IMG/VR virus record: IMGVR_UViG_3300032080_000022
Location: 1 to 22,815 of that record
Source: a virus
Length of the DNA: 22,815 nt
Reading direction: 5' to 3' (one strand)
A program made the position numbers and the translations under genes. Positions 11,871 through 22,372 of the stretch are shown piece after piece (the first letter of the stretch is position 1; every line of letters begins with the position of its first letter). A model generated the notes under the pieces. It did no database searches and was not told where the DNA came from. It saw only the letters and a list, made by a program, of their open reading frames with translations.

Positions 11871-12520
11871 CAGCAGAAGCGCCGGTGCGGGTCAAGGCGC
11901 TCGGCGATATCAACCGGCATGCCGAATTTCGTCGACGCGCTGCTTGCCGCCGTCCAACTCGAATTGATGACATCGAGGATCTGTTCGCTGCGCAACGCCG
12001 GATCGCGCGACCTGCTGTAGTAGTGCCGCTTGATAAGATCGATCGCCGCCCGCTCAATGTCGTAGGGCAGCCCGCTGAGCAGCGCATAGCCGGCGGTATA
12101 GGTGACTTCCAGTCTTGTGCTGAACCAGCCGAAGCGCAGCCCGTCGCTGATGCGCCAGATCAGCCCGTTTTCCGCGTCGATGTCATATTCATCGGGCGGA
12201 ACGATAACATTACCATCGTCAATGATTTCGATAACGTCTGTGATCGGCGCCCGCGCCAGCCGCAACGGATGACAGAGGCTCGACGACCAATGTTCGTCGT
12301 TGTTGATCAGCCATTCGAAATCGAAGCGCTCTTTCACCGTCTCTTGTGCGAAGGTGCGGTTTGTGTACTGCCGGATCTGGTCGCTTGCCTGCCGGATCAG
12401 GGCCCCAAGAAATGCGTCATCGGTCGCGCCGGAAATCTCCATTTCCGCCTTCAGCGTCTCTATCGTCGTCAGGTCATGCGTTGCCGCCGGATCGATGACG
12501 GTCAGGGTACTTCTCACCAT
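11870..12520 (-). CDS. Head-tail connector protein (gp6-like)
   Basis: 216 residues. Adaptor of the neck that docks under the portal. The N-terminal helical part reads 'LTTIETLKAEMEISGATDDAFLGALIRQASDQIRQYTNRTF' in outline, the classic 'lk..l.i.....D..l..li..A...ie.yt.r.f' pattern of the HK97 gp6/Phage_connect_1 group. A beta-rich middle follows (RLARAPITDVIEI, 'DEYDIDAENGLIWR', RLEVTYTAGYA), then a second helical part, 'LPYDIERAAIDLIKRHYYSR'. Length and order fit. A good ribosome-binding site (AGGGAC) precedes the ATG, which overlaps the stop of the repeat protein. The stop overlaps the next start (TGATG). Confidence 0.88.
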   Translation of the reverse strand: MVRSTLTVIDPAATHDLTTIETLKAEMEISGATDDAFLGALIRQASDQIRQYTNRTFAQETVKERFDFEWLINNDEHWSSSLCHPLRLARAPITDVIEIIDDGNVIVPPDEYDIDAENGLIWRISDGLRFGWFSTRLEVTYTAGYALLSGLPYDIERAAIDLIKRHYYSRSRDPALRSEQILDVINSSWTAASSASTKFGMPVDIAERLDPHRRFC

Positions 12521-14253
12521 TACAAGTCCCTCGGTACTGCGCCCTGCCGGGCAGGGCGGGCAAGTGCTGCAACTGCCGACGATCTGGCGACGGAAGGCGG
12601 CGCCGGGCTTCTAGGTACGGCGGTCGGTGTGCGCTCCCGCGCGACGGGCGCGCCGAGATCGATCGCTCCCGCGGCGATGCCGCCCGCCGTCAACCGATGC
12701 AGTTGCGACAGCGCCGCCCGCGCGGGCGAAGGTGCGCCGAAAGCCAAGCCCGCGACGGAGAGCGAATGCGCCTGCGTGACGGGCGGATTGCCGAGCGCCG
12801 GCGTTCCGGTTGCGAGCGGTTGCGCCGCCAGAATGAAGGTTGTCGCCGCCGAAGGGCTCGCGAGCGACGGCGCTGATGCCGCAATGCCGATCGCCGCCAG
12901 GGCATGCGCTTGAACCAGCACGGCGCCGGCGAGCGACGGGCTGCCCGCCGTGATCGCCGAAGCGCCAAGCGCCGTTTCCGTCGCGTCTGCCGACAGCACG
13001 GGCCCGCCGAGCGACGGTGCTGCGATCGACAACGGCGCCGCAGTCAGAACATGGGTCTGCGATATCGCCGAGCTGGAGAGCGACGGAACGCCGGATGACA
13101 GCGCCGCGGCGGCGAGTGCGTAAATCTGACTGATCGCCGGATTGCCGAGCGACGGCGCTGATGTCGCAATGCCCGATGCTGCAAGCGACGCATGCCCGGC
13201 GGGCGACGGCGTGCCGAGCGATACAGCGCCGGTGCTGACGCCGGAAGCGGTCAGGCTGTGAAGCTGGCTGATCGTCGCCGGCGCCGTGACAGGCGCACCC
13301 GCGACAATGCCGGTTGCTGCCAGACTGTGAACCTGAGACAGCGCAGCACCGGCGAGCGATACCGCGCCGGTGTCGAGCGCCGATGCCGTGAAGCCGATGT
13401 CGGGGAACTGGCGGGCGAAGATCGCGGCTCCGACTTCCGGGGTTCCCGTCGCGAAGCCGGTTGCCGTCAGCCCATGCGCTTGGGTCAGCGTCGCCGCAGT
13501 GCGGGTCACGGCGCCGGTTGCCAGCGCCGCCGCGGCAAGCGAATGGACTTGGCTGAGCGCCGATGTGCCGAGCGATACGGCGCCCGATGCCAGCCCCGAA
13601 GCGGTCAGACTGTGATCAGTGACGCCGCCGGAAGCGCCCTTTACGGCGACCATCGCCACGCCGACAGCGTTGAACGGCGCCGTTGCCGTGCCGCTGTAAC
13701 TGCCTGCCGTCGCCGCGCTGCCCGACCAGCCCTTCTGCTGATGGTTGACCGAAGTCGTGTTGGACCATGCCGCCGTCGTTGCTGCGCCGCTGGCGGTCAG
13801 GCTGCCCGCCGTCGTGTAGTGATCGTGCGCCGAAAAGACCAACGTGCAATCACTCACGCTGGTCGTTACCGAAGTCGTGCCCGTCGTCGATCCTTCGGCG
13901 CACGACGCGACATGGAACGGGCTCGACGCGTCGCTTCCGATGATGTTGACGGCAGTGATGACGCCGATGTCGCCATTCTGCCCGCTGTGGCTGACGACAA
14001 CGTTGGCGGTCGTCTGCGCCGGGCTGTTGAGGCCATAGACCCACGTCGTCGTGCTGGTCGTCGTGCGGGCCAACAACGTCATTGCCGTGCCGTTGAACGT
14101 CGCGACGGTCGGGTCGAAGGTCGCCGAAGCGGCGTTCGTCACAAAGACAAGCAGCGCCGAAGCGCCCGTCGCATTGTGCGACACGGTGTAGGACATCGGA
14201 TAAGCAGACGCCTTGTAGGCGCTGCTTGCCGTGCCGAGTGTCGGTGCTGCCAT
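12520..14253 (-). CDS. Repeat protein with Ala/Ser/Gly-rich 22-23-residue repeats
   Basis: 577 residues. Residues 1 to about 210 form a beta-rich N-terminal domain (SYTVSHNATGASALLVFVTN, 'ATFNGTAMTLL', and a mid part ending 'FNAVGVAMVAVKG') that looks like a jelly-roll or concanavalin-like structural domain. Residues of about 214-536 are about 14 degenerate repeats with consensus H-x-L-x-A-x-G-[LIV]-x-x-G-[AV]-x-x-L-G-x-x-x-[LI]-x-Q-x. The last 40 residues are Pro/Arg-rich and look disordered. There is no signal peptide or catalytic motif. Its place between capsid and connector genes is unusual for a fibre, and suggests a head fibre, a decoration, or a cargo gene inserted in the operon. The stop overlaps the next start (TAATG). 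The ribosome-binding site is weak. Confidence 0.75.
   Translation of the reverse strand: MAAPTLGTASSAYKASAYPMSYTVSHNATGASALLVFVTNAASATFDPTVATFNGTAMTLLARTTTSTTTWVYGLNSPAQTTANVVVSHSGQNGDIGVITAVNIIGSDASSPFHVASCAEGSTTGTTSVTTSVSDCTLVFSAHDHYTTAGSLTASGAATTAAWSNTTSVNHQQKGWSGSAATAGSYSGTATAPFNAVGVAMVAVKGASGGVTDHSLTASGLASGAVSLGTSALSQVHSLAAAALATGAVTRTAATLTQAHGLTATGFATGTPEVGAAIFARQFPDIGFTASALDTGAVSLAGAALSQVHSLAATGIVAGAPVTAPATISQLHSLTASGVSTGAVSLGTPSPAGHASLAASGIATSAPSLGNPAISQIYALAAAALSSGVPSLSSSAISQTHVLTAAPLSIAAPSLGGPVLSADATETALGASAITAGSPSLAGAVLVQAHALAAIGIAASAPSLASPSAATTFILAAQPLATGTPALGNPPVTQAHSLSVAGLAFGAPSPARAALSQLHRLTAGGIAAGAIDLGAPVARERTPTAVPRSPAPPSVARSSAVAALARPARQGAVPRDL
12646..13614 (-). repeat. Tandem degenerate 66-69 bp coding repeats
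   Basis: About 14 in-frame units encode 22-23 residues each inside the repeat protein. The best conserved parts read HSLTASG..SGAVSLG, LSQVHSLAA and APSLGNPAISQ. The units differ at many codons, so they are old rather than freshly duplicated. Units near 13380-13440 and 12960-13020 deviate most. Confidence 0.8.
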
Positions 14254-20183: not shown

Positions 20184-20924
20184 TCATAGCGTGCAGACCC
20201 GACAGGCGCCGGCGTCGCGCTGACCGCGCATCGGCTTGTTGGTCTTCGGAATGCGCCCGGCTTCGAATTCGGCGCGAAGCCCGGCAAGGCTGCTAGGCCA
20301 TGTGTCGCGCCCTGGAGTGCGGAAGGTGGCGCCGATCGCCGCTTCCTGCCCTTCGGCTTCCGCCCACGTCTCAGGATCTTCCTTCCACAGTCGCCACCAC
20401 TCTATCAACCTCTGATGGTAGCATCTGCGACAGTCGGTCCTGACGGGGATATCCGCGCCGATGCCGTCGAGATAAGCCCACACGTCGGCTTCCCGCCAGC
20501 CCCACTCGCGCAAGGGAAAACGCATCTCGACGCCGTCGATGTCGGAGTAGGCGCCGCCGGCGCGGCCCTCTTCGTCGGCGCGAAGCCCGACGTAGGAGAA
20601 CACGGGCCCGAGCTTCGCCCGCTCGGCAAGCCAGCGGCGATACGGTTCGATCTTCAGAATACGGGTGCAGAAGCGCCGCCGGAAGTTCGGCAGGGTGCGT
20701 TGTTCCGCAATGATGCCGTTCAGTCCGGTGTGCGCCATGATCGGAAGCAGCGGCTTGCCCAACATGTCGCCGAGCTTGCGCCAGTGGGCGAACATTTCCG
20801 GGTATTCGTCGCCCGTTGGCGTGCAGACATACGTATAATCGGTTTCCGGGTGCAGTTCACGAAGGCGCAGTGCGAGCGCTGTGCTGTCCTTCCCGCCGGA
20901 CAGCGCGACGACATGGGTTTGCAT
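20184..20924 (-). CDS. PAPS reductase-like (adenine nucleotide alpha-hydrolase superfamily) protein
   Basis: 246 residues. The PP-loop SGGKDS at residues 9-14 binds ATP, as in PAPS reductases, DndC and N-type ATP pyrophosphatases. Other family marks are TPTGDEYPEM near residue 35, RRRFCTRILKIEP at 82-94 and YVGLRADEEGR at 111-121. Two CxxC pairs (C165/C168 and C241/C244, the latter almost at the C-terminus) could hold zinc or an iron-sulphur cluster. The start ATG overlaps the methyltransferase stop (TGATG), so the two are probably translated together. The substrate is unknown. Phage members are often annotated as phosphoadenosine phosphosulfate reductases, but a role in nucleic-acid modification, as for DndC, is at least as plausible here because the gene sits beside a DNA methyltransferase and none of the rest of sulphate assimilation is present. 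Confidence 0.8.
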   Translation of the reverse strand: MQTHVVALSGGKDSTALALRLRELHPETDYTYVCTPTGDEYPEMFAHWRKLGDMLGKPLLPIMAHTGLNGIIAEQRTLPNFRRRFCTRILKIEPYRRWLAERAKLGPVFSYVGLRADEEGRAGGAYSDIDGVEMRFPLREWGWREADVWAYLDGIGADIPVRTDCRRCYHQRLIEWWRLWKEDPETWAEAEGQEAAIGATFRTPGRDTWPSSLAGLRAEFEAGRIPKTNKPMRGQRDAGACRVCTL

Positions 20925-22372
20925 CAGTCAGCCGCTTCCGCTTCCAGCCCACAGCGCCGGCGAATGTCGCCGATGTACTCAGCTTCCTTCTCACAGCCGA
21001 TCGCGTTGAAGCCCTCAAGCTGTGCGGCCTCCAACGTCGTGCCGCTTCCGCAGAATGGATCCAAAATCGTGCCACCCGGCGGCGTGATCAGCCGCGCCAG
21101 CCAGCGGCAGACGGACACGGGCTTTATCGTTGGGTGCTTCGACCCGCCGCGCTCAGCCCGCGAAGCCTTCGCGCCGTAGAAGAAGCGCAACTCTTGGTCG
21201 CTGAACGGGAGCGCGGGGAAGAAGCGGGCGGCGGTTCCCCGATCCAGTTCAAGCCGAACGCCGTCGTTCGTGCCCTGCGATGTGCTCGGCATCGTCCGCG
21301 AGGAACCCAAGCCGCCGCGCCGTGCCGGGCGCGCCCCGCCGTTCTTCTCGCCGAACCGCGCGAAGGCGTCGAGCACTTCCGGCGAGTTGTCATGCGCTAA
21401 ATTACTCGGCCATCTGCCTTGCACGCTTGGCGGCTCTGTATTTGCGCGCGCGTGCTGTATCGGCGGCTCGCCGTTCATCGGCGGTTTTGTAGATTGCATG
21501 CTCTTGGCAGTGATCGTAACGCCGCATGCATCGCAGGTTTTCAAGCCTGTTGTCGGCTCTGTCTCCGTTGACGTGGTGGATATCATGCCCGGCAGGGATT
21601 GGCCCGTATGTATTCTCCCATATCCGTCTGTGTTCGAACTGATAGCGGTACTTGCCGCCCTCGTTCCAACTGAGCATCCAGTATCCGGCCTGTTTGTATC
21701 GGCAAGGCTGATGCCACCCCTTCCGCTCGAAGTCGGCTCGGCATGCCCTGTTGCAGTAGATGCCCTTGTTGCCGGTTTTCCACGTCTCGTTTTCCTTGCC
21801 GCATCCTCGGCACACGAAACGCAAAGGTTCTGATCGCCGTCCCATGATCCATCACTAGGCAGTTGGCCTGCTGATATTGGAACACGGCACGCATCTATAT
21901 TCAACGGCGCCAATGGACCCGGCTTTCTAGCTAGTACAATTGGCTCATATGCCGGTTTCAAGAGGGATTTAGACTTGGGGAACCCCTGCGAATGCACCCA
22001 CATCAGGCAGTCACGAATTTCAAATCCGGCATCCTCAATTGCGCACGCCAGCCGGTGATGAGTACGGCTTCCACCGAAGACGGCCATGTGCCCGCCGGGC
22101 GGAAGCAGGTCGTAGGCCAGCCGCCATGTCTCAGGGCGGAAGGCGATGTCGCCGCCGTCCCAGACCTTGCCCATGAAGCCCGGCGCGATCCGCTTGAACA
22201 CGCCGGTTTCGCCGTCGCTCTTGATCGGCGCGGCGCCTGGATCGCTGTACCGCTTGTTGATGCTGGTCAGGTGATACGGCGGGTCGGTCACAATCGCCTG
22301 TACCGTGCGGCCAGCCGCCTTCATCGCCGCCATCTGTTCCAGACAGCAGCCGTGCAGAATTTCGATCGTCAT
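20924..22372 (-). CDS. DNA N6-adenine/N4-cytosine methyltransferase with interrupted target-recognition region
   Basis: 482 residues, N6_N4_Mtase type. Motif IV is DPPY at residues 30-33, and the AdoMet motif is DPFCGSGTT at about 438-446. Catalytic motif before AdoMet motif is the beta-class order, so the region between them should carry the target-recognition domain. Residues 1-165 and 318-482 read like an ordinary phage methyltransferase (HSQGFPKSKSLLK, APLNIDACRV, then GRWPSNLAHD and KHPTIKPV). Residues of about 177-317 are Ser/Thr-rich low-complexity sequence. That stretch is the shifted-frame reading of an HNH endonuclease gene (see 21402-21845), yet it contains no stop, so the methyltransferase frame stays open throughout. 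The start lies 1 nt after the small terminase stop. The TGA overlaps the next ATG (TGATG). A likely role is protection against host restriction. Whether the enlarged protein is active cannot be told from sequence. Confidence 0.85.
   Translation of the reverse strand: MTIEILHGCCLEQMAAMKAAGRTVQAIVTDPPYHLTSINKRYSDPGAAPIKSDGETGVFKRIAPGFMGKVWDGGDIAFRPETWRLAYDLLPPGGHMAVFGGSRTHHRLACAIEDAGFEIRDCLMWVHSQGFPKSKSLLKPAYEPIVLARKPGPLAPLNIDACRVPISAGQLPSDGSWDGDQNLCVSCAEDAARKTRRGKPATRASTATGHAEPTSSGRGGISLADTNRPDTGCSVGTRAASTAISSNTDGYGRIHTGQSLPGMISTTSTETEPTTGLKTCDACGVTITAKSMQSTKPPMNGEPPIQHARANTEPPSVQGRWPSNLAHDNSPEVLDAFARFGEKNGGARPARRGGLGSSRTMPSTSQGTNDGVRLELDRGTAARFFPALPFSDQELRFFYGAKASRAERGGSKHPTIKPVSVCRWLARLITPPGGTILDPFCGSGTTLEAAQLEGFNAIGCEKEAEYIGDIRRRCGLEAEAAD
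21402..21845 (-). CDS. HNH homing-type endonuclease nested in the methyltransferase gene
   Basis: 147 residues, in the -1 frame relative to the surrounding methyltransferase. An N-terminal zinc-binding pattern is visible (C12-x2-C15 and C31-x3-C35). The HNH core spans residues 87-104, GHDIHHVNGDRADNRLENL in outline, with H90/H91 and N99 as likely active-site residues and the NRLENL tail typical of the HNH_3 group. The C-terminus is strongly basic. Its start is well bounded: the same frame has TAG TGA only two codons upstream of the ATG. The ribosome-binding site is weak. The stop TAA is formed inside the bases that encode the methyltransferase GRWPSN motif. GC is visibly lower than in the flanks, which suggests later arrival. 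Such free-standing enzymes nick or cut DNA at allelic sites and spread their own gene. The protein family is clear; expression is inferred. Confidence 0.85.
   Translation of the reverse strand: MGRRSEPLRFVCRGCGKENETWKTGNKGIYCNRACRADFERKGWHQPCRYKQAGYWMLSWNEGGKYRYQFEHRRIWENTYGPIPAGHDIHHVNGDRADNRLENLRCMRRYDHCQEHAIYKTADERRAADTARARKYRAAKRARQMAE

What the first reader, a model, noticed from the sequence alone, without database searches (positions are those of the whole stretch)
21402..21845. A complete HNH endonuclease gene nested in another frame inside a methyltransferase, with both frames kept open
The HNH gene (147 codons) lies wholly within the region between the catalytic and AdoMet motifs of a beta-class methyltransferase, in the -1 frame. 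In the HNH frame, TAG TGA sits just before its ATG and its stop falls in the bases coding for the methyltransferase GRWPSN motif. The methyltransferase frame reads about 140 extra Ser/Thr-rich residues with no stop. Homing genes usually lie between genes, in introns or in inteins. One that invades a coding sequence, starts and stops in its own frame and leaves the host frame intact would be a fourth arrangement, with the insert acting as a harmless or specificity-changing loop in the target-recognition region. The arrangement is seen directly; the evolutionary reading is inference.
Basis: partly seen in the sequence, partly recalled or inferred. Interest (0 to 1): 0.78.

Follow-up and report, generated by a model that had tools for sequence, protein, structure and literature searches.

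The report
Nuclease gene hidden inside methyltransferase gene
A small DNA-cutting enzyme gene that behaves like a selfish homing gene sits inside a phage DNA-methylating enzyme gene and is read in a shifted frame that leaves the host gene readable; the arrangement was described in 2025 for mycobacterium phages, and here it turns out to recur at several places in this methylase family with both frames kept open.

Summary
A 147-codon HNH_3 endonuclease ORF (21845..21402, -) lies wholly inside a 482-codon beta-class DNA methyltransferase ORF (22372..20924, -), in another frame, and both frames are open. An uninvaded sibling (L180) has a linker of about 30 residues where the window has 154. Every contig found with this HNH family (48% identity or more) has it inside a methyltransferase or its remnant, in one phase. 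Between two phages the HNH cassette is 95% identical while the methyltransferase core is 67%. Synonymous recoding predicts about 22 stops across 11 family members; none is seen. For the window alone an open frame is unremarkable (P 0.16-0.49). Best explanation: a homing endonuclease gene that inserts into a target-recognition linker, keeps the host frame stop-free as a disordered loop, and spreads between phages. Homing itself is inferred. The kind is not new: Arsenault et al. 2025 (PMC11855218) described the 'ShiLan' out-of-frame HNH in mycobacteriophage methylases. The window is a variant with a different site, a different HNH subfamily, an ATG start, and a stop codon embedded in the host GRWPSN motif. 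The survey adds more sites, the other phase, and antisense cases.

The parts
20924..22372 (-). Host gene: beta-class DNA methyltransferase ORF, 482 codons
   Evidence: Pfam N6_N4_Mtase E=7.6e-31; phrog_67 DNA methyltransferase E=7.9e-54
21402..21845 (-). Nested HNH_3 endonuclease ORF, 147 codons, ATG start, TAA stop; methyltransferase frame = HNH frame +1
   Evidence: HNH_3 E=1e-16; predicted fold pLDDT 88, best PDB match I-HmuI
21419..21880 (-). Methyltransferase-frame linker that holds the insert (residues 165-318, Ser/Thr-rich, predicted disordered)
   Evidence: About 30 residues in uninvaded L180; pLDDT about 25-50
21852..21857 (-). TAG TGA stops in the HNH frame upstream of its ATG
21401..21418 (-). 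Conserved host motif GRWPSN; its AGT AAT codons supply the HNH TAA stop (21402-21404)
   Evidence: Same relation in most window-type relatives, whose HNHs end ..KMA(x)* at GRWP[SA]N
21534..21578 (-). HNH catalytic motif HHVNGDRADNRLENL (HNH residues 90-104)
   Evidence: H90, H91, N93, D98, N99, N103 and L104 invariant in 14 nested relatives
22274..22285 (-). Methyltransferase catalytic motif IV, DPPY
   Evidence: Invariant in alignments A1 and A5
21035..21061 (-). Methyltransferase AdoMet motif I, DPFCGSGTT
   Evidence: Conserved in alignment A1; position after motif IV gives the beta-class order

Best explanation
This is a frame-preserving homing-endonuclease cassette nested in a phage DNA methyltransferase gene. 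A cassette of roughly 0.45-0.5 kb encodes an HNH_3 endonuclease with an N-terminal zinc-ribbon-like region. It sits in the variable linker between the NIDACR and GRWPSN motifs, which is probably the target-recognition region. The host frame reads through it as a disordered loop without stops, while the endonuclease is made from its own internal start and stops at a TAA embedded in the host GRWPSN codons. The endonuclease presumably cuts uninvaded methyltransferase alleles near the conserved motif, and repair copies the cassette in. Shown: nesting, both frames open, empty site, constraint on the HNH frame, stop avoidance in the host frame across the family, and transfer between divergent methyltransferases. 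Inferred: cleavage and homing, translation of both products, and retained methyltransferase activity.
For: Empty-site sibling L180. Every detected member of the window HNH family is nested in a methyltransferase, or in a methyltransferase remnant (L102/L103), in one phase. L109/L111: HNH 95% identical, methyltransferase core 67%; DNA identity rises from about 57-80% to 97-100% at the cassette edges and falls to 33-43% beyond it. HNH and methyltransferase distances are uncorrelated in the window type (r=0.19, Mantel p=0.18). Differences concentrate at HNH third positions; window/L101 HNH codons 37 synonymous/42 non-synonymous, methyltransferase codons 12/74. Zero stops in the host frame of 35 nested copies, while the third frame and non-nested HNHs have about the expected number. 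HNH model pLDDT 88, closest to homing endonuclease I-HmuI. Methyltransferase core folded, insert disordered. No Rfam intron match; no intein family in Pfam at E 0.01. Several relatives have strong Shine-Dalgarno sequences before the nested start.
Against: For the window itself the open host frame could be luck (P 0.16-0.49), and its ATG has no good Shine-Dalgarno sequence (about the 56th percentile of background). No cleavage site is known and no experiment exists. The I-HmuI match is modest (E=0.012, TM 0.42). L102/L103 keep the HNH ORF in a deleted methyltransferase remnant and L005 has a frameshift in the methyltransferase C-terminus, so host function is not always preserved.
Confidence: 0.84

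Rival explanations
1. The HNH is a self-splicing intron ORF or an unusual intein, so the methyltransferase is restored by splicing.
For: Homing endonucleases commonly travel in introns and inteins, and the mycobacteriophage methylase family also carries a real intein elsewhere (PMC9957025).
Against: No Rfam match at E up to 1 over the gene; no intein family in Pfam; the host frame is open through every nested copy, which splicing would not require; HNH codons abut and overlap the host motif. PMC11855218 reached the same conclusion for ShiLan.
Confidence: 0.05
2. Chance: an HNH gene fell into the methyltransferase, the host frame happens to be open, and the methyltransferase is dead or dying.
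For: For this HNH sequence and codon usage an open frame has P 0.16-0.49. L102/L103 and L005 show damaged hosts.
Against: The family-wide absence of stops includes 43-48% GC loci where P is below 0.02; the window's catalytic and AdoMet motifs are intact; the cassette recurs in divergent methyltransferases.
Confidence: 0.07
3. The insert is a domesticated functional pair: the HNH acts with the methyltransferase, for example in packaging, nicking or restriction-modification, instead of homing.
For: HNH proteins serve phage packaging (cited in PMC12613952), and the window methyltransferase lies next to a terminase small-subunit gene.
Against: Patchy presence (2 of 159 viral and 1 of 80 genome methyltransferase loci carry a nested HNH); HNH and host histories are incongruent; the same methyltransferase family hosts unrelated nested nucleases at other sites.
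Confidence: 0.1
4. The HNH is made as a fusion with the methyltransferase N-terminus through programmed frameshifting.
For: Overlapping frames allow it in principle.
Against: TAG TGA stops lie two codons before the HNH start, so a shift would have to occur within a few codons; several relatives have an independent start with a Shine-Dalgarno sequence.
Confidence: 0.03

Closest known systems
[quoted passage not shown] Mantra gp64 is a member)
   Same: HNH endonuclease in the same relative frame inside a phage DNA methylase of the same broad family (phrog_67); host frame stop-free; no splicing signals; insert less diverged than its host.
   Different: Window HNH is only 33% identical to Mantra's; it sits between NIDACR and GRWPSN instead of in the EPIxxARKP motif; it starts with ATG, not GTG; its stop codon lies in the host GRWPSN motif; no mycobacterial context seen.
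Applejack gp54/gp55 (PMC12613952) and Molly gp60/gp61 (ON970627)
   Same: HNH annotated out of frame inside a DNA methylase.
   Different: Molly's HNH is in the other phase (host = HNH+2) and at another site, after GFPKS; Applejack's site was not examined here.
Pacc40 gp60 (PMC11855218)
   Same: Hidden out-of-frame endonuclease-like ORF in a phage methylase.
   Different: Different methylase-helicase host protein; its HNH assignment is less certain by that paper's own account.
I-HmuI, HNH homing endonuclease (PDB 1u3e)
   Same: Closest solved structure to the predicted HNH (probability 1.00).
   Different: I-HmuI is encoded in a group I intron (own knowledge); no intron here.
Lone in-frame LAGLIDADG insertion in cluster F methylases (PMC9957025)
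   Same: Unspliced homing-type nuclease insertion in the same methylase family.
   Different: Read in the methylase frame, another nuclease family, another site.

Membership tests
Out-of-frame HNH insertion elements of phage methylases (ShiLan type) | HNH ORF complete in an alternate frame within a DNA methylase gene | tested here: met
Out-of-frame HNH insertion elements of phage methylases (ShiLan type) | No stop in the methylase frame through the insert | tested here: met
Out-of-frame HNH insertion elements of phage methylases (ShiLan type) | Same relative frame as ShiLan (third frame of the methylase) | tested here: met
   Mantra and window both have methyltransferase = HNH+1
Out-of-frame HNH insertion elements of phage methylases (ShiLan type) | Same insertion site as ShiLan | tested here: not met
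   Mantra-type copies in EPIxxARKP, window in NIDACR-GRWPSN
Out-of-frame HNH insertion elements of phage methylases (ShiLan type) | GTG start near the insertion start and TAAC end | tested here: not met
   ATG start, TAA followed by T
Out-of-frame HNH insertion elements of phage methylases (ShiLan type) | No intron or intein signature | tested here: met
   Rfam; Pfam
Out-of-frame HNH insertion elements of phage methylases (ShiLan type) | Element moves between divergent methylases | tested here: met
   Met for the window's HNH family (L109/L111); not testable for the window copy alone
HNH endonuclease (Pfam HNH_3) | Profile match with conserved H/N residues | tested here: met
   E=1e-16; invariant HH, N, DN, NL
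Homing endonuclease | Cleaves the empty allele and is copied into it | not testable with these tools
   needs biochemistry or mixed infection
Beta-class DNA methyltransferase | Motif IV (DPPY) precedes motif I (FxGxG) | tested here: met
   DPPY residues 30-33, DPFCGSGTT residues 438-446
Group I/II intron | Intron RNA structure | tested here: not met
   no match at E up to 1
Intein | Splicing blocks around the insert | tested here: not met
   no intein family in the methyltransferase ORF at E 0.01; PMC11855218 for ShiLan

The most novel reading that the evidence does not exclude
This phage DNA methyltransferase family is a general landing pad for unspliced, frame-preserving homing genes. Several nuclease families (HNH_3, a phrog_2340/phrog_1271 zinc-ribbon nuclease, and a Vsr/PvuRts1I-like nuclease) have entered at about six sites, in both shifted sense frames and in antisense. 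In each the host frame stays open, in some hosts two at once. Such dual-frame cassettes would be a further way, beside introns and inteins, to occupy a conserved gene without killing it.
Probability: 0.6. Interest if true: 0.7.

Novelty: new variant of a known kind. Interest (0 to 1): 0.55.

Why it matters
Homing genes are thought to need an intergenic site, an intron or an intein to spare their target. Here a nuclease cassette sits in a coding sequence and is itself readable in two frames. The selection on each frame can be separated: amino acids in the HNH frame, stop avoidance in the host frame. That makes it a clean natural system for studying how overlapping genes arise. The methylase linker may tolerate insertion because it is a variable recognition region. 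Automatic annotation hides these nucleases, so published counts are likely low.

Tried and rejected
1) The idea that some nested HNHs (L131, L132, L136, L146, L147) were broken: rejected, an artefact of taking the ORF at the first aligned base (corrected). 2) Intron or intein: rejected. 3) Free-standing close relatives of the window HNH: none found; the two loci first thought to be free (L102, L103) are methyltransferase remnants. 4) Plasmids: no match to the HNH. 5) Bacterial genomes with the HNH alignment: no confirmed match; with the methyltransferase alignment 80 loci, one with a nested HNH (L286, Cupriavidus). 6) Many inserts of about 100 residues after GFPKS (profile position 148): left aside as probable in-frame domains, because they gave no hit to the HNH profile in any frame. 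7) PDB by sequence with the HNH profile: no match at E 0.01. 8) Specificity-changing role of the loop: no evidence found.

Full report
WHAT IS THERE. On the minus strand of a 22.8-kb virus record (63% GC; terminase small subunit, PAPS-reductase-like gene and other phage genes alongside) lies a 482-codon methyltransferase ORF, 22372..20924, with a complete 147-codon HNH_3 ORF, 21845..21402, inside it in a shifted frame. Reading along the HNH strand, the methyltransferase codons start one base after the HNH codons. The HNH frame is closed by TAG TGA two codons before its ATG. Its TAA stop is made from the AGT AAT codons of the host GRWPSN motif. Catalytic DPPY and AdoMet DPFCGSGTT motifs are intact in the host.

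EMPTY SITE. The nearest uninvaded relative found, L180 (IMG/VR 3300049501_000001), is 68% identical in its best segment and has about 30 residues between CRV and GRWPSN where the window has 154. So the extra host-frame sequence is about 124 residues. The predicted structure gives a confident core (blocks in the 90s) and pLDDT about 25-50 for most of residues 165-326; residues 340-401, outside the insert, are also disordered.

THE FAMILY IS ALWAYS NESTED. Scanning IMG/VR with the HNH found relatives at about 48-74% identity to the window in L005, L006, L101-L112. Every one is inside a methyltransferase in the same relative phase; in L102/L103 the HNH ORF is intact inside a methyltransferase that has lost much of its core. 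L105-L107 are one sequence in three contigs and L102/L103 one in two. Most end ..KMA(x)* exactly at GRWP[SA]N. L005 and L102/L103 sit at a second site, downstream, before RFFYCAKAS.

BOTH FRAMES: WHAT SELECTION DOES. Recoding each HNH synonymously with local codon usage predicts 21.7 stops in the host frame of 11 window-type members; 0 are seen. Over 35 nested copies of several types the host frame never has a stop, whichever phase it is in. The remaining frame carries stops: in the window type 66 observed against 84 expected. Twenty-nine HNHs not nested in a long ORF have 231 against 200 in +1 and 367 against 372 in +2. These controls are HNHs recovered in the same search; they are more distant relatives, so they control for the method, not for the exact protein. 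Differences fall on HNH third positions (window/L101: 33, 25, 60), and HNH codon changes are far more often synonymous than methyltransferase codon changes (37/42 against 12/74; L138/L136 32/14 against 9/37). So the HNH amino acids are constrained, while the host frame appears constrained mainly against stops.

MOBILITY. L109 and L111 share HNHs 95% identical in methyltransferases 67% identical. The DNA identity profile steps up at the cassette edges to 97-100% and falls to 33-43% beyond the downstream edge. The ShiLan-like copies L146/L147 and L138/L147 show the same (95% against 65%, 93% against 54%), and L146 and L147 come from loci of 40% and 60% GC. HNH and host distances are uncorrelated in the window type (r=0.19, Mantel p=0.18); in the ShiLan-like set they are correlated (r=0.68) with clear exceptions. 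Recombination of the cassette is therefore shown; that the HNH drives it is inferred.

TRANSLATION. PMC11855218 found no ribosome-binding site for ShiLan and proposed leaderless initiation. Here, about 13 of 35 nested starts lie behind strong Shine-Dalgarno sequences (top 3% of background), for example L110 AAGGAGG, L149 GAGGAGG, L005 AAGGAG, L136/L146/L147 TGGAGGC; some of these are related copies. Internal initiation on the methyltransferase mRNA is thus plausible for many. The window's own ATG has no such sequence.

WIDER SURVEY. A profile search of alternate frames of the methyltransferase ORFs found nested HNHs at several sites: after GFPKS (Molly, L286 in a Cupriavidus necator genome, L245; host = HNH+2), in EPIxxARKP (ShiLan/Mantra type), in NIDACR-GRWPSN (window type; antisense in mycobacteriophage MKC-IRE-02, L004), before RFFY (L005), before HPTVKP (second nested HNHs in L112 and L119), and in the CxxC region of a divergent methyltransferase (L165, L159; +2). 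Other nested nucleases appear too: an antisense Vsr/PvuRts1I-like ORF in L146 (phrog_559 E=7e-17) and phrog_2340/phrog_1271 ORFs in L147, L277 and L263. The open host frame is individually significant for L146 (P 0.002) and L263 (P 0.0015) but not for L147 and L277 (P 0.14-0.22), and only marginal for L004 (P 0.03-0.26, by frame and extent). The trait is uncommon in methyltransferases taken without regard to HNH: 2 of 159 viral and 1 of 80 genome loci by the HNH profile, and those lists favour uninterrupted genes.

KNOWN OR NEW. The arrangement has been published: Arsenault, Gosselin and Gogarten 2025 (PMC11855218), building on PMC9957025, with Applejack in PMC12613952. Mantra, a ShiLan carrier, was itself recovered here with the window HNH as query (33% identity). 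The window is a distinct variant by site, HNH subfamily, start codon and use of a host motif for its stop, and none of the close relatives found is a named mycobacteriophage. Not found in the parts of the papers read: antisense nesting, the second phase, two nested nucleases in one methylase, the stop-avoidance test, and nested starts with Shine-Dalgarno sequences. The literature held is partial (no bioRxiv), so prior description of some of these cannot be excluded.

VERDICT. Observation confirmed, evolutionary reading largely supported, novelty claim reduced to a new variant of a known kind.

Noticed in passing
L146:1448-2260 (-): A 271-aa antisense ORF with zinc fingers and a Vsr/PvuRts1I-like core (phrog_559 E=7e-17, phrog_3339 homing endonuclease E=2e-10) lies in a 276-residue insert right after DPPY of a methyltransferase that also carries a sense out-of-frame HNH.
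   Followed up: partly
L004:1614-2222 (-): In mycobacteriophage MKC-IRE-02 an unannotated HNH_3 (E=9.8e-10) is encoded antisense inside the methyltransferase at the same NIDA.R-GRWP linker as in the window.
   Followed up: partly
L112:3709-4128 (+), L119:2881-3321 (+): A second nested HNH in the same methyltransferase gene, before HPTVKP.
   Followed up: partly
L147:3691-4320 (+), L277:3400-3816 (+), L263:3433-3867 (+): Nested ORFs related to phrog_2340 'endonuclease' and phrog_1271 at the HPTVKP site, same phase as the HNHs; L277 is in a Paraburkholderia phenazinium genome, L263 in an uncultured bacterium MAG.
   Followed up: partly
L102/L103:2828-3430 (+): Methyltransferase remnant: most of the enzyme is deleted but the nested HNH ORF is intact.
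   Followed up: no
L005:3577-3780 (+): The C-terminal part of the methyltransferase continues in another frame: a real frameshift or an assembly error.
   Followed up: no
window 12520-14253 (-): A 577-aa ORF made largely of repeats of the type 'ALSQVHSLAATGIVAGAP', probably a tail or surface protein.
   Followed up: no
window 20184-20924 (-): PAPS-reductase-like gene overlapping the methyltransferase stop; the same neighbour occurs in Pseudomonas phage Dolphis.
   Followed up: no
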